Assembly: GCA_009692425.1 (NCBI GenBank)
Contig: SHZF01000009.1
Span: 1-48,213 of the forward strand
Source: Myxococcales bacterium
Lineage (GTDB): Bacteria; Myxococcota_A; UBA9042
DNA: 48,213 bases
Direction: 5' to 3'
Shown: in pieces, positions 20,135 to 26,546 of the stretch
Layout: the number at the start of each line of letters is the position of its first letter
Numbering within the stretch: the stretch's first letter is position 1
Notes under the pieces: model-generated
Told to the model about the DNA's origin: nothing
The model's database searches: none
What the model saw: only the letters and a program-made list of their open reading frames with translations
Program-made: the position numbers and the translations under genes

Positions 20135-22714
20135 TCAATCGACGGTGATGGACTTCGACACGTTCTTGGGCACGTCCGGATGCACGCCGTGGTCGCGCAC
20201 GCCGAGCCCGTCGAGCCACGCCGCCTTCTTGCGGCTCATCGCCAACGCCAGCCTCTGCAGCGCGACCGTCGCCGAAAACACCGTCGCCAGGGTGTCTCCG
20301 GTGGGAGGCAGCGCGATGTACAGGCTGCGGTACGCCGGGTTGTCGGCGGGGGCCTTCTCCGCAGCCTGGCGCAGCGCGGGGTGGTCTTCTGCGATGACCA
20401 CGGTCATGGCCCCGCGAATCTTGTGTGTGTTGATCTGGCTGACCGTCAGGTTGATGTCGCGCACTTCGGGCCCCGTCACGTAGACGAGCGGGTAGTCCGC
20501 CCGCGCGGCTTGCAGTGCCAGTCCGAGTCCCGCCGCCGCCGCCGTGCCCGCAGCGTGGCCCGCCAGCCTCCCGTCCGGCCCAACCAACCAAAGCGCCGCG
20601 TCGGTCGGTGCAATGCCAAGCTTGCCCAGTGCCGCCAGCAGTGCGGCGACCTGCGCCGGTCCCCACACCGTGTTCCAGCCTAGGATGGTGTTCGGCCCGT
20701 GCTTGAACTCCGACGCCTCGTAGCCCTGCGTATGGTTGAGTACGACTTCGCGAATCTTGAGCGCTCCCTCTAGCGCCACGGCAATGACGCGGGTGGCGAG
20801 CAGGTGCATCGACGGGCAGGGGTACAGCAACTCGGCGGCGGCCTCGACCGCCGCTTCGGTCGTCCGCAGCGTCGTGGCGACGTGATCGGGCAACGCGGTG
20901 AAGCGCCGCCGGTGGTCGGACAACGCCTGCACGGCGCGGCCATCGCCTGACGCCGCCCGCCGCTCGCCTACACGCAGGGCCAGCCCATAGAACACCGCGA
21001 GCTGGTTCATGAAGCTCTTGGTCGCCGGCACCGCGACCTCGGGCCCGCAGCGCAGCGGCAGCACGAGGTCCGCCTTCTCCTGCGCCAGCGTTGAATTCAC
21101 GTTGTTGACCAGCACGACCCGCCGCACCGCGCGCCCGGATGCGAGCACGTCGTTGACCACGTCGATGAGGTCCTTTGTCTCGCCCGACTGGCTGACGGCC
21201 ACGAACACGTCGCCGTCCTTGAGGCTGTGCACGCACTGCGCGCGGAACTCGCCGGGCAGCAGCGGGATGACGGTGACGCCGGCGATCGCGTCGAAAAACA
21301 ATGCCGCAGCCTTGGCGGCGTGCCAACTCGTGCCGCAGCAGACGATGAAAATTCGGCCTCCCGCCCGGTCGGCGGCCGCCACGTCGTCGCAGAACCGCTC
21401 GACGGCGGCGCGAAAGGCCTCCAGTTCCTGCTCCTCGATCAGCACGTCGAGCAGGCGCACGACGAGCAGTTCGCCGGGACCCTCGGCTAGGGCGAGCAGA
21501 TCGGCGAGGAAGCCCGCCTCGGTCGACGCCAGCTTGCGCCGCAGCAGGTCGCGCTCGCCTTCGGTGCCGCGTCGCACCACTTCTTCTGGCAGGCTGCCGA
21601 GCAGCGTCTTGACTTCCGGTTCTGCGACCAGGGCGCGCCACGTCGCTGCGATGCGATCGTCGTCGATCTGCTCGCGCAGGAGTTCCCATCCGGACCACAG
21701 TACCGAGCGCGCGGTGGAGTCCTCGTCGCCGAGGTACGGCAGCAGGGTACGCGCGGCCAGGCTGCCGCCCTGGAACAGGCGCACGACGGCACGGCATGTT
21801 GCGACCTGGGCGGCGATCTCCTGCTCCATGAACGACGCAAACAAGGGCTGCAACGTGGTGTCTTCGGCCCGCAGGCGACTGCGCACGGGCTGGCGCGCGA
21901 TCGGTTCACCCGCCTCGACCCTGCGTGGGCCGTCGGGCGACGGGATGGTGCGGTCGGCCACACCGTACAGTTGCCAGGCACCATGGCCATCGAACTCGAC
22001 GAACTCGCCTTCGGCCATCGGGACCAGGATGCGGGTCAGCTTGAGCACGCTCGACAAGTCGGACGAAGCGATGCCGAAGCGACCCCCTGCGTCGTCGGCG
22101 CCGACGCCGAAATACAAGGACGACCCCGACTTTACGGCCCACGCGCAGCGGCTGACTGGATCGACGATCACCGCCGCGTAGGACCCCTGCAGGCGCCCCG
22201 CCGCATCGACGAGACTCGCCCGCATGAGTGCCCGCCGTGCCGTCGGATTGCGTTGCGCGCTGGCATCGAGGGAGCGCAGGCGGGCGGCAAACGCGTGCTC
22301 CACGGTGTGCACGACCATCTCACCGTCGTTGTCGCTGGCGACCGCGTGGCCTTCGCGCTCGAGCCAGGCCTTCAGCGCATCGCAGTTCGTCACGTTGCCG
22401 TTGTGCGCGCCGTACAGGTAGGTGTGGCAGCGCACGACGTGGGGCTGCGCGTTGGCCTCGTCGACCGCGCCGAACGTCGCCCAACGCACCTGGCCGCACA
22501 GCAACTGCCCGCCGAGTCCGACGATTCCGAGCGAGTGGATCATCGCCGATGGGGCGCCGACCCCCTTGCGCAGGTCGCACGCGTCGCCGTCGCCTTGCAG
22601 CACGGCACCCGTCGAGTCGTAGCCGCGGTACTCGAGCGTGCGCAGCAGTTCGCCGGCTATGCGGCCGAGGTCGGGCCGAGACCGTTCGTAGACGAGGCCG
22701 ATCACGCCGCACAT
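20135..22714 (-). CDS. GlmS-like glutamine amidotransferase / SIS-domain protein, enlarged
   Basis: Resembles glutamine-fructose-6-phosphate aminotransferase. The ATG at 22714 gives MCGVIG with Cys2 as the Ntn nucleophile; LEYRGYDSTG, VRWATFG, HNGNV and SDNDGE follow. Two SIS domains (IVCCGTSWHAA, VAVSQSGETKDL, ATKSFMNQL; then EFKHGPN) and the C-terminal DVPKNVSKSITVD match GlmS. It has 859 residues against about 610: some 115 residues of helical sequence lie between the two halves and the last SIS domain is also longer. His of HTRWATHG is replaced by Phe. Substrate may differ from GlmS. Confidence 0.85.
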   Translation of the reverse strand: MCGVIGLVYERSRPDLGRIAGELLRTLEYRGYDSTGAVLQGDGDACDLRKGVGAPSAMIHSLGIVGLGGQLLCGQVRWATFGAVDEANAQPHVVRCHTYLYGAHNGNVTNCDALKAWLEREGHAVASDNDGEMVVHTVEHAFAARLRSLDASAQRNPTARRALMRASLVDAAGRLQGSYAAVIVDPVSRCAWAVKSGSSLYFGVGADDAGGRFGIASSDLSSVLKLTRILVPMAEGEFVEFDGHGAWQLYGVADRTIPSPDGPRRVEAGEPIARQPVRSRLRAEDTTLQPLFASFMEQEIAAQVATCRAVVRLFQGGSLAARTLLPYLGDEDSTARSVLWSGWELLREQIDDDRIAATWRALVAEPEVKTLLGSLPEEVVRRGTEGERDLLRRKLASTEAGFLADLLALAEGPGELLVVRLLDVLIEEQELEAFRAAVERFCDDVAAADRAGGRIFIVCCGTSWHAAKAAALFFDAIAGVTVIPLLPGEFRAQCVHSLKDGDVFVAVSQSGETKDLIDVVNDVLASGRAVRRVVLVNNVNSTLAQEKADLVLPLRCGPEVAVPATKSFMNQLAVFYGLALRVGERRAASGDGRAVQALSDHRRRFTALPDHVATTLRTTEAAVEAAAELLYPCPSMHLLATRVIAVALEGALKIREVVLNHTQGYEASEFKHGPNTILGWNTVWGPAQVAALLAALGKLGIAPTDAALWLVGPDGRLAGHAAGTAAAAGLGLALQAARADYPLVYVTGPEVRDINLTVSQINTHKIRGAMTVVIAEDHPALRQAAEKAPADNPAYRSLYIALPPTGDTLATVFSATVALQRLALAMSRKKAAWLDGLGVRDHGVHPDVPKNVSKSITVD

Positions 22715-23015: not shown

Positions 23016-23981
23016 ATGGCCACCCCTGCCGACATCGACCGCATCGTCGCCGCCGTGTTGCGCGAGATGGGCCCGGCGTCTGTCGCCGCGCCTGCGGCTC
23101 CGGCCGTCCCCCACCGCCGCCCCGACCGCGACGACGTGGCCCCGCGCCGCGGCAGCACGGCGTGGCGCGAACGTGCTACTCTTGGTGCACCGCCCGAGCC
23201 TGCCCCGACGTCCGTGCAGTTCCGCAGCGCGCCGTCGGACGGGTCGCCCCAATTGCCCGGACTGGCGCGGCTCGCGTTCCCTGCCGGTCTCGCCCGACTG
23301 ACCGCGGCGACACCCGCTCGCCTCGGCATCGGCCGCGCCGGGCTGCGCACGCCAACCGACGTGTACCTGACGTTGCGCGGCGACCATGCCGTTGCGAAGG
23401 ACGCGGTCGCGAGCGTGCCGAAGCCGGGCTTCGTCGCCAGCCTGGGCGCGATCGAACTTCGCTCCCAGGCGCTGGATCTGCAGACCTTCCTGTTGCAACC
23501 GGACCTGGGCCGGCGGCTGGACACCCCGTCGCGCGTCAAACTGCTCGCCGAGGGCACGCACGGCGCCGACGTGCAGGTCATTTTCGCCGACGGCCTGTCC
23601 GCTTGGGCGGCCGAACACAATGCGGCGCTGCTTCCTGCGCTGCAAGCCGCTCTGGGGCAGGCGGGTTTCAGCGTCGGCAAGCCGATCTGGGTCCACCGCG
23701 GTCGCATCGCCGTCGCCGACGAGATCGGGGTGGAACTTGCTGCAAAGGCGACCCTCATCTGCCTCGGCGAACGGCCCGGACTCGGCACCGGCGATTCGCT
23801 TTCCATCTACCTCGCGTGGGGCCCGAAGCTGGGCCAGGACAACGCGGAGAAGAACTGTATTTCGAACGTGCGGCCCGCGGGTTTCTCGGTCGACGCCGCC
23901 GCGCGCCAGGCGGTCGACATCCTCACTCGCGCACGCAGCCACGGCCGCGGCGGGCTTGCCCTCGGACAAGCCGGTGCCTGA
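23016..23981 (+). CDS. eutC: ethanolamine ammonia-lyase small subunit EutC
   Basis: Small subunit of the adenosylcobalamin-dependent enzyme that splits ethanolamine to acetaldehyde and ammonia. Family motifs: RLGIGRAGLRTPTDVYLTLRGDHAVAKDAV, FLLQPDLGRRLD, ICLGERPGLGTGDSLSIYL and NCISNVRPAGF. Residues 1-19 (MATPADIDRIVAAVLREMG) form an amphipathic helix like the microcompartment encapsulation peptides of EutC, followed by a Pro/Ala-rich linker. 321 residues against about 295. The partner eutB is not next to it. Confidence 0.9.
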   Translation: MATPADIDRIVAAVLREMGPASVAAPAAPAVPHRRPDRDDVAPRRGSTAWRERATLGAPPEPAPTSVQFRSAPSDGSPQLPGLARLAFPAGLARLTAATPARLGIGRAGLRTPTDVYLTLRGDHAVAKDAVASVPKPGFVASLGAIELRSQALDLQTFLLQPDLGRRLDTPSRVKLLAEGTHGADVQVIFADGLSAWAAEHNAALLPALQAALGQAGFSVGKPIWVHRGRIAVADEIGVELAAKATLICLGERPGLGTGDSLSIYLAWGPKLGQDNAEKNCISNVRPAGFSVDAAARQAVDILTRARSHGRGGLALGQAGA

Positions 23982-24039
23982 ACCGACTCGGTGAGTTGAC
24001 CGCGCTCTTTCACCCGCCCCCTGCTCCCAGGAGCCGCCG

Positions 24040-24753
24040 ATGCCGCGCCCCCACTGGCTTGCCGCCGACCTCGTCGCCCTGCCGGCCAAACTGCTGTCGT
24101 GTCGGCTCATCCCCAACGCCGACGCCGCGTTGCTGGCGCGCTTGGGGGCACCGGCCGCACGCACCGCGTTGGGCCTCGTGACCTGCGACCAGGACGACTC
24201 GACGTATGCGGCGCTCGATCAGGCGACCAAGCACGCCGACGTCGAAATCGTGTACGCGAAAAGTTTCTACGCCGGCGCCGCGCACGCCTCAGGCCCCTTG
24301 TCGGGCGAAGTGCTCGGCGTGCTGGCCGGGCCGGATCCCGACGAGGTGCTCGAAGGCCTCGCCGCCTTCCGCCGCTACCTGGAGGAGTCTGCCTGCTTCT
24401 ACCAGGTGCCCGGGCCGGCGGGTGGCGCGCGCCCCGCGTTCTTTCCGCACGTGCTGGCCGAGACGGGCCGCTACCTGGCGCCGCTCGCGGGCATCGAGGT
24501 CGGCGCGCCGCTGGCATACCTGATCGCGCCGCCCGTCGAGTCGGTCGTCGCCGTCGATGCCGCGCTGAAGGCGGCCGACGTGCGACTGTGCCACTGGTTC
24601 GGCCCACCCACGGAGACGAACTTCGGGGGTGCGTACCTCGCTGGCGACCTCGCCGCGGTCGAAGCGGCGGCTGCGGCCTTTGCAGAAGCCGTCGCCGACG
24701 TGGCGCGCCGGCCGCTGGATGCTGCGCGGCGTGCGGCGGCGGCGCGTGGCTGA
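24040..24753 (+). CDS. eutL: ethanolamine utilisation microcompartment shell protein EutL
   Basis: EutL is a tandem-BMC-domain shell protein that forms pseudohexameric trimers with a gated pore. 237 residues against 219 in E. coli. Features: LVALPAKLLSCRLIPNADAALLARLG start, GLVTCDQDDSTYAALDQATKHADVEIVYAKSFYAG, SGEVLGVLAGPDPDEV, and the second domain with CHWFGPPTETNFGGAYLAGD. It follows eutC by 58 bases on the same strand, the order seen in eut operons. Confidence 0.92.
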   Translation: MPRPHWLAADLVALPAKLLSCRLIPNADAALLARLGAPAARTALGLVTCDQDDSTYAALDQATKHADVEIVYAKSFYAGAAHASGPLSGEVLGVLAGPDPDEVLEGLAAFRRYLEESACFYQVPGPAGGARPAFFPHVLAETGRYLAPLAGIEVGAPLAYLIAPPVESVVAVDAALKAADVRLCHWFGPPTETNFGGAYLAGDLAAVEAAAAAFAEAVADVARRPLDAARRAAAARG

Positions 24754-24850: not shown

Positions 24851-25525
24851 ATGAAGCCTTCGACGGTCCTCTTGGTCGCGGCGCAGTTAGCCGCCTTGGT
24901 CGCCGGGTGCGCTACGCCCCTGCCTGCCGCGACGGGTGCCGCAGCGGGGGGCGGGGATGCGACGCTCGTCGCCAATGCGGACGCCGCCGTTTCCGATGCC
25001 AACACTCAGGACACGGCGGGAGGCGATTCCGCCAATCCCGGCGCGGCGAACCCGGACGCCGTGGCGAGTGACGCCAAGGCTGTCGATGTCCCGCCCCCAG
25101 CGGCTGACGCTGCGGCCGCGGATACGATCGTACCGGGCCCCGATGCCGCGCTGCCCGTCGATGCGGCCGAGCCGACCTGTGCCGCCAAGTTCGGCACGCC
25201 AACCGACAAGAAGGTTTCCACGAGCGGCATCTACACCGTCGAACTCGACGGCCCGCTTCAGGCCGCGCCCGGCACCCTACAGCCCTACCAGATTCGCGTC
25301 ACGGCGGGCGCTGCGGGCGAGGCCGTCGTGCAGCAGGCCATCTCAGTCACGTACATCCACACCCAGATGGGCCACGGCGGACTGAAGACGCCTTCGATCG
25401 AAGAACTCTGCAAGGGCATCTACAAGGTCAAGAATGTGCAACCGTCGATGGGCGGCACGTGGGCGCTCGGCTTCACGTTGGCGAAGTCGGACGTCGTGAA
25501 GTTCAGCATCATCGTCAAGAACTGA
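24851..25525 (+). CDS. lipoprotein with Asp/Ala linker and YtkA-like C-terminal domain
   Basis: Secreted lipoprotein: the signal peptide ends in the lipobox LVAGC with Cys20. Residues 30-110 are a low-complexity Asp/Ala/Gly/Pro linker that would hold the globular part away from the membrane. The C-terminal 110 residues are a beta-rich domain with THTQMGHGG-like spacing (TYIHTQMGHGGLKTPSIEEL) and GGTWALGFTLA, reminiscent of YtkA/FixH-like domains. Function unknown. Own promoter likely at 24769. Confidence 0.75.
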   Translation: MKPSTVLLVAAQLAALVAGCATPLPAATGAAAGGGDATLVANADAAVSDANTQDTAGGDSANPGAANPDAVASDAKAVDVPPPAADAAAADTIVPGPDAALPVDAAEPTCAAKFGTPTDKKVSTSGIYTVELDGPLQAAPGTLQPYQIRVTAGAAGEAVVQQAISVTYIHTQMGHGGLKTPSIEELCKGIYKVKNVQPSMGGTWALGFTLAKSDVVKFSIIVKN

Positions 25526-25568: not shown

Positions 25569-26546
25569 GTGCGCAGGTTGTCCAGCGGCAAATGGCCGGC
25601 AGTGGGTCGCCCGCAGGAGCGCTGCGAGTGCACGCAACTCGTGTTCCCCGAACTCAACCTGACGATCGAGGGCGTTTCGGTCGCGGGCGTCGAGACGTGG
25701 CTGCGCATTCCCGAATGGGGGCTCGGAATCGACACCGGCCGCTCGCCCGACAGCATCGTGCGCTGCCGCCACATCGCGCTGACGCACGCGCACATGGACC
25801 ACGCCGGCGGGCTCGGGCAGATCCTCGCGCTGCGCAAGCTGTGGTCGCTCGGGCCTTGCACCGTCTACGCGCCCGCACCGTCTTGCGCCGATCTGGCGTC
25901 GGTCGTCTGCGCTTGGCAGCGCTTGCACGGCGTCGAGTTCGATTGGTCGCTCGTGCCGATGGAGTCGGGCTGCGAAGCCGACATCGGCGGCGGGCGGCGG
26001 TTGCGGGCGCTCGCCGCCGATCACGTCGTCCCGGCCCTGGGTTACGCCATTGTGAGCCACCCGCGCAAGCTCCGGCCCGAATTCGCCGGGCTCGACGGCG
26101 ATGCGCTGCGGCAGTTGCAGGAGCAAGGCACCGAGGTCACGGCGCCCCAGCGGCGCGTGCTGTTGGCGGCGTCGGGCGACACGCTGGCAGGTGCGCTGGA
26201 GCGATCCACGGAATTGCAGGAGGCCGACGTCCTGTTGCACGAGGCGACGTTCCTCGACGAGCGCCGCACCCGCGACGATGCCCACAAGGGCGGCCATACG
26301 CACCTCGATGAGTTGATCGAGCGCGCCCAGGGCATTCAGGCGCGCCACTTCGTGCCGTACCACGTGAGCCAGATCTACTCGGCCGACGAGGCCCGCCGCG
26401 TGCTGAGCCAGCGCATCCCGCCCGATCTGCTCAACCGCACGACGGCGCTGCTGCCCGGCGAACGGGTGGCACCGGCCGGGTATGCCGGCGATTGGAACAC
26501 GACGGGTCAGTTCCCCACGGTACGCCCGAGCGACCTGACGCGCTGA
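25569..26546 (+). CDS. RNase Z-like metallo-beta-lactamase-fold hydrolase
   Basis: MBL-fold metalloenzyme. The metal-binding motif THAHMDHAGG (HxHxDH) is near residue 73; later metal ligands are in LAADHVVPALGY, VLLAASGDT and HEATF, and the ending HFVPYHVSQIYS matches the ribonuclease Z/ElaC group. 325 residues, GTG start at 25569 behind GGACGGAGAGG. The N-terminal half lacks a clear exosite, so tRNA 3' processing is likely but not proven. Confidence 0.8.
   Translation: MRRLSSGKWPAVGRPQERCECTQLVFPELNLTIEGVSVAGVETWLRIPEWGLGIDTGRSPDSIVRCRHIALTHAHMDHAGGLGQILALRKLWSLGPCTVYAPAPSCADLASVVCAWQRLHGVEFDWSLVPMESGCEADIGGGRRLRALAADHVVPALGYAIVSHPRKLRPEFAGLDGDALRQLQEQGTEVTAPQRRVLLAASGDTLAGALERSTELQEADVLLHEATFLDERRTRDDAHKGGHTHLDELIERAQGIQARHFVPYHVSQIYSADEARRVLSQRIPPDLLNRTTALLPGERVAPAGYAGDWNTTGQFPTVRPSDLTR

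What the first reader, a model, noticed from the sequence alone, without database searches (positions are those of the whole stretch)
23016..24753. eutC-eutL pair without adjacent eutB
EutC needs EutB for activity, and eut loci normally have eutB directly before eutC. Here the upstream gene is the divergent GlmS-like one. EutC keeps an encapsulation-type N-terminal helix and EutL is complete, so a microcompartment is likely. Either eutB lies elsewhere, or this is a split or remodelled compartment.
Basis: partly seen in the sequence, partly recalled or inferred. Interest (0 to 1): 0.65.

Follow-up and report, generated by a model that had tools for sequence, protein, structure and literature searches.

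The report
Ethanolamine module split across the genome
An uncultured myxobacterium keeps the two halves of its ethanolamine-splitting enzyme in different parts of the genome, one half next to a pore protein for a protein-shelled compartment of the Haliangium type; related bacteria keep these genes together, so this is an inherited rearrangement of a known add-on and not a broken system.

Summary
Window 23016-23981 encodes EutC and 24040-24753 encodes EutL, with no eutB beside them. The genome has exactly one eutB (contig C96, mid-contig, intact, catalytic residues conserved) and one eutC, so the pair is not a duplicate.

The compartment is a Haliangium ochraceum (HO)-type microcompartment scattered over the genome. 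A shell/aldehyde-dehydrogenase operon lies on C48. Two vertex proteins plus a class II aldolase lie on C80. A lone BMC-T lies on C87. A deoxyribose-phosphate aldolase with an encapsulation-type helix lies on C5.

EutC/EutL is therefore half of an "EUT module", already described as an HO/SPU satellite (PMC8217296), but split here. In related genomes eutB-eutC-eutL is usually contiguous (57 of 75 testable loci). In the window's family eutB is detached in one well-supported 14-genome clade, and separation recurs at least three more times in Myxococcota. eutC-eutL stays together (70 of 76), under purifying selection. The reactivase EutA was not found in any of 53 genomes searched.

Best reading: EutC carries EutB into an HO-type shell, EutL gates entry, and acetaldehyde from ethanolamine and probably deoxyribose-5-phosphate meets one aldehyde dehydrogenase. 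The parts list and the split are shown; encapsulation, assembly and flux are inferred.

The parts
23016..23981 (+). eutC: light chain of ethanolamine ammonia-lyase (321 aa)
   Evidence: Pfam PF05985 E=4e-64; aligned to PDB 3any/3abo light chain; only copy in the genome
23016..23075 (+). N-terminal amphipathic helix of EutC (aa 1-20), encapsulation-peptide-like
   Evidence: MATPADIDRIVAAVLREMGP; similar helix in relatives' EutC and in the genome's AldDH and DeoC; hydrophobic moment 6th of 82 N-termini. Encapsulation itself not tested
24040..24753 (+). eutL: BMC-T shell protein of EutL type (237 aa)
   Evidence: two BMC domains; TIGR04502 E=2.7e-84; matches PDB EutL chains
25602..26546 (+). metallo-beta-lactamase-fold (RNase Z-like) protein that follows eutL in 9 of 10 genomes with a detached eutB; link to ethanolamine unproven
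   Evidence: Lactamase_B_2 E=1e-13; conserved neighbour
24851..25525 (+). putative lipoprotein between eutL and the MBL-fold gene; not conserved in relatives
   Evidence: no Pfam or NCBIfam hit; unmatched in relatives
20135..22714 (-). divergent GlmS-like gene occupying the place where eutB would be; context only
   Evidence: SIS and GATase domains; not conserved next to eutC in relatives

Best explanation
eutC-eutL is one half of a detached EUT module serving a Haliangium (HO)-type microcompartment. Proposed working: EutB (C96) and EutC (window) form the B12-dependent ethanolamine ammonia-lyase; EutC's N-terminal helix carries the complex into the HO-type shell (C48, C80, C87); EutL inserts in that shell as a gated pore for ethanolamine and/or cobalamin; acetaldehyde is oxidised to acetyl-CoA by the C48 aldehyde dehydrogenase. 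An EP-bearing DeoC (C5) would feed acetaldehyde from deoxyribose-5-phosphate into the same dehydrogenase. In the ancestor eutB-eutC-eutL was one cluster; eutB was separated once in the window's lineage and the arrangement has been inherited. Shown: gene content, single copies, helix-like N-termini, conservation, phylogeny. Inferred: encapsulation, EutL insertion in this shell, acetaldehyde flux, substrate.
For: Single intact eutB elsewhere, with R160, Q162, N193, E287, D362 of E. coli EAL conserved (residue roles from own knowledge). Shell parts match solved H. ochraceum shell proteins best or near best: HO-5816, HO-5815, the 5v74 vertex protein, 5v76. AldDH with N-terminal EP-like helix in the shell operon. 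BMC-P pair plus class II aldolase on C80, the type I HO satellite described in PMC8217296. DeoC with EP-like helix; DeoC beside eutB in G003. EUT module near DeoC-type genes and/or BMC-Tdp in L108, L164, L172. Split clade 14/14 at 100/100; EutC+EutL tree groups 12 of the split genomes at 100/100. dN/dS 0.07-0.11. B12 adenosyltransferase present.
Against: No experiment. No phosphotransacylase of PduL type, no EutA, and no dedicated ethanolamine permease above cut-off, so cofactor recycling, reactivation and uptake rest on unidentified proteins. Some relatives have the HO-type shell without the EUT genes (G001, G011, G015) and one has eutBC without BMC-domain hits (G032), so the two are not strictly coupled.
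Confidence: 0.72

Rival explanations
1. Vestigial remnant: the ethanolamine system is decaying and the separated genes are leftovers.
For: Three family members have eutB without eutC (G003, G017, G019), and EutA is missing throughout.
Against: Intact frames with dN/dS 0.07-0.11 for eutB, eutC and eutL in five species of one genus; catalytic residues kept; eutC-eutL retained together in 70 of 76 loci. eutB-only genomes are 81-92% complete, so missing eutC may be assembly loss.
Confidence: 0.08
2. Cytosolic lyase: EutBC works outside any compartment for nitrogen, as in Acinetobacter, and EutL serves the HO-type shell for another purpose.
For: Acinetobacter EutBC works without metabolosome or EutA (PMC9426561); G032 has eutBC without BMC-domain hits.
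Against: EutC has an EP-like helix resembling that of the compartment AldDH and of DeoC; eutL stays adjacent to eutC even when eutB leaves.
Confidence: 0.17
3. Assembly or binning artefact: eutB really adjoins eutC in the organism, or one contig is foreign.
For: The genome is a draft in 137 contigs.
Against: eutC has 22 kb of upstream contig and eutB about 21 kb and 11 kb of flank; the same separation by contig in 13 genomes of the family, several with 7-10 kb of eutB-free upstream sequence; both trees place G000 inside the same family clade.
Confidence: 0.03

Closest known systems
EUT-module satellite locus of HO/SPU3/SPU6 microcompartments (Sutter et al. 2021, PMC8217296)
   Same: ethanolamine lyase subunit with a EutL-type BMC-T encoded away from the main shell locus
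   Different: here the module is itself divided: eutB sits alone elsewhere, and EutA was not found in the genome or its class relatives
HO-type I BMC of Haliangium ochraceum
   Same: BMC-H, two BMC-Tdp and a BMC-P with H. ochraceum structures as best or near-best PDB hits; two BMC-P plus an aldolase as a satellite; a lone BMC-Tdp
   Different: adds EutB/EutC/EutL; AldDH relationship to HO not tested by tree
EUT1/EUT2 ethanolamine metabolosomes (Salmonella, Enterococcus)
   Same: EutB, EutC with N-terminal EP-like helix, EutL, EutM-like BMC-H, AldDH
   Different: no single operon, no EutA, no PduL-type PTAC found; has BMC-Tdp and a BMC-P triplet; regulator, EutS/K and EutG/T not searched for
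Acinetobacter baumannii EutBC (PMC9426561)
   Same: ethanolamine lyase without EutA
   Different: there no BMC genes are involved; here a shell set and EutL are present

Membership tests
HO-type I BMC | BMC-P triplet | tested here: met
   three PF03319 proteins, one on C48 and two on C80
HO-type I BMC | satellite with two BMC-P and an aldolase | tested here: met
   C80 pair followed by PF00596 aldolase
HO-type I BMC | HO-like BMC-Tdp and BMC-H | tested here: met
   best or near-best PDB hits 5v74/HO-5816, 5v76, 5djb/HO-5815
HO-type I BMC | AldDH of the HO/SPU5/SPU7 branch | not tested
   only its N-terminal EP-like helix and PRK15398 membership were seen
EUT module (satellite) | EutL-type BMC-T together with lyase genes | tested here: met
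   eutC-eutL adjacent in window
EUT module (satellite) | EutB and EutC in one locus | tested here: not met
   eutB on C96
EUT module (satellite) | EutA present | tested here: not met
   PF06277 hit in G000 is FtsA-like (FtsA by own reading of the sequence); true EutA finds only three Bacillota loci
Ethanolamine ammonia-lyase | both subunits present, EutB with catalytic residues | tested here: met
Ethanolamine ammonia-lyase | ethanolamine deamination with AdoCbl | not testable with these tools
   needs assay; PduO-type adenosyltransferase present
EutL family | EutL model scores | tested here: inconclusive
   PRK15405 above cut-off, TIGR04502 281.9 against 300
EUT1/EUT2/EUT3 main-locus metabolosome | lyase genes inside the main shell locus | tested here: not met
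   C48 operon lacks eutB and eutC

The most novel reading that the evidence does not exclude
Separation of eutB from eutC-eutL is adaptive: by controlling EutC and EutL together and EutB apart, the cell decides whether the lyase is active and encapsulated, plugging ethanolamine into a general acetaldehyde compartment on demand. This would explain why the same split arose repeatedly.
Probability: 0.12. Interest if true: 0.65.

Novelty: new variant of a known kind. Interest (0 to 1): 0.42.

Why it matters
The Haliangium-type shell is the main structural model for microcompartments, yet PMC8217296 calls its function enigmatic. This lineage supplies EP-like cargo candidates (EutC and DeoC, both making acetaldehyde by known chemistry) beside a full HO-type parts list, making the acetaldehyde hypothesis directly testable. 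The recurrent split also shows that obligate enzyme partners can stay under purifying selection while encoded far apart, so operon-based searches miss such modules.

Tried and rejected
Second complete eut operon: one EutB and one EutC in the genome. EutA hits of PF06277: the own-genome hit is FtsA. Cobalamin riboswitch or other Rfam RNA near eutC or near the other loci: none. PduL phosphotransacylase: absent from the genome. Conserved upstream neighbour of eutC: none; the divergent GlmS-like gene is private to this genome among those compared. Conserved eutB neighbourhood across genera: none, only within genus g6 and partly g8. Literature searches for a published eutB/eutC split or Myxococcota EUT module found nothing beyond PMC8217296.

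Full report
What is in the window. The ORF starting at ATG 23016 and ending at 23981 is EutC (Pfam E=4e-64); the ORF 24040-24753 is EutL (TIGR04502 E=2.7e-84, slightly under its cut-off; PRK15405 above its cut-off) and aligns over its length to solved EutL chains. EutC begins MATPADIDRIVAAVLREMGP, an amphipathic helix of the encapsulation-peptide kind (6th of 82 N-termini by hydrophobic moment). No eutB is present in the 22 kb upstream; the neighbour is a divergent GlmS-like gene.

Where the rest is. The genome (4.94 Mb, 137 contigs, 96% complete) holds one EutB, at C96:21461-22762, 469 aa, intact. It aligns end to end with E. coli and Listeria EutB, and the E. coli positions R160, Q162, N193, E287 and D362 are all kept (their catalytic roles are from own knowledge). 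It holds one EutC, the window's. The other BMC genes are on C48: an operon BMC-Tdp, BMC-H (EutM-like), BMC-P, aldehyde dehydrogenase with N-terminal helix MMDEARIQAIVAEVVKRLGDG, and PduT-like BMC-T. C87 carries a lone BMC-Tdp. C80 carries two more BMC-P followed by a class II aldolase.

Which compartment. BMC-H, both BMC-Tdp and BMC-P have H. ochraceum structures (HO-5815, HO-5816, 5v74, 5v76) as best or near-best PDB hits (that 5v76 is an H. ochraceum chain is own knowledge). A BMC-P triplet with two of them beside an aldolase in a satellite is the published mark of type I HO BMCs (PMC8217296). So the shell is HO-type, not a classical EUT shell. The same paper describes EUT modules (EutA/B/C plus EutL) as satellites of HO and SPU types, proposed to add ethanolamine as a second substrate. 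The window holds half of such a module.

How unusual is the split. In 53 genomes (own, family, class and one other of the phylum), 22 have eutB and eutC on the same contig and 13 on different contigs, all 13 in the window's family. Of 80 named loci fetched with an EutC alignment, 75 are testable: 57 have eutB directly upstream, 4 have it 1.8-8.1 kb away, and 14 have none in the available upstream sequence (2.5 kb or more). These 80 overlap in part with the 53 genomes. EutB was found in 18 of 19 genomes looked up through such loci. EutL follows EutC directly in 70 of 76. On an 86-sequence EutB tree the label 'separate' needs four changes, all forced by well-supported branches; the window's clade of 14 has 100/100 support. 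One of the 14 (G019) could not be tested for adjacency because eutB is near a contig end, and three (G003, G017, G019) have no eutC found. The EutC+EutL tree groups 12 split genomes at 100/100 and places G012 (58% complete) apart, which may be a further event. Around the ten eutC loci compared, only eutC, eutL and a metallo-beta-lactamase-fold gene are widely shared; eutB neighbourhoods differ between genera. dN/dS is about 0.07 (EutB), 0.09 (EutC) and 0.11 (EutL) within one genus (dS is high, so values are rough). These facts argue for functional, inherited genes.

Missing parts. EutA is not found: the PF06277 hits are short matches, and the one inspected, in the own genome, is FtsA by its sequence; a true EutA finds only three Bacillota loci among those fetched. 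Precedent exists for an EutA-independent lyase (PMC9426561). No PduL phosphotransacylase and no ethanolamine permease above cut-off; a PduO-type adenosyltransferase is present. EutH, EutG and other phosphotransacetylases were not searched.

Second acetaldehyde source. The genome encodes a DeoC on C5 that begins MAQDREFEALVSTIADRVRAEL, a helix like those of EutC and AldDH, followed by a linker and a CKAGKGECTGCGW motif. Family members share it. In G003 DeoC and eutB are divergent neighbours. In L108, L164 and L172 an EUT module lies near DeoC-type genes and/or BMC-Tdp. This supports, but does not prove, an acetaldehyde-centred compartment fed by ethanolamine and deoxyribose-5-phosphate, close to the suggestion made for HO and SPU BMCs in PMC8217296.

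Verdict. Real, correctly read by the first stage, and best explained as a variant of a described kind: an EUT-module satellite of an HO-type BMC that has itself been split. What is new here, as far as the searched library shows, is the detachment of eutB, its inheritance through a family, its recurrence, the absence of EutA, and the pairing with EP-bearing DeoC in the same genome. Encapsulation, co-assembly and flux remain inferences.

Noticed in passing
L237:5890-7203 (G000:C5): DeoC with an EP-like N-terminal helix, His-rich linker and conserved CKAGKGECTGCGW...RRP motif before the aldolase domain; possible metal site, role unknown.
   Followed up: partly
L084, L086, L082, L041 (EutC of genus g8): EutC N-termini with a second, later EP-like helix in tandem (for example LQALIAAIVQQVLED ... 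LEQMITEIAQELWSQ).
   Followed up: no
window 25602-26546: RNase Z-like MBL-fold gene conserved downstream of eutL in 9 of 10 genomes with detached eutB.
   Followed up: partly
window 20135-22714: GlmS-like protein of 860 aa with SIS and GATase domains, well under glmS model cut-offs, with long extra sequence.
   Followed up: no
L010:12192-19499: Very long Cys-rich repeat protein (DGNxCT-type repeats) downstream of eutB; related repeat proteins occur near several other eutB loci.
   Followed up: no
G003, G017, G019: eutB but no eutC found, in genomes 81-92% complete; incompleteness or true loss not resolved.
   Followed up: no
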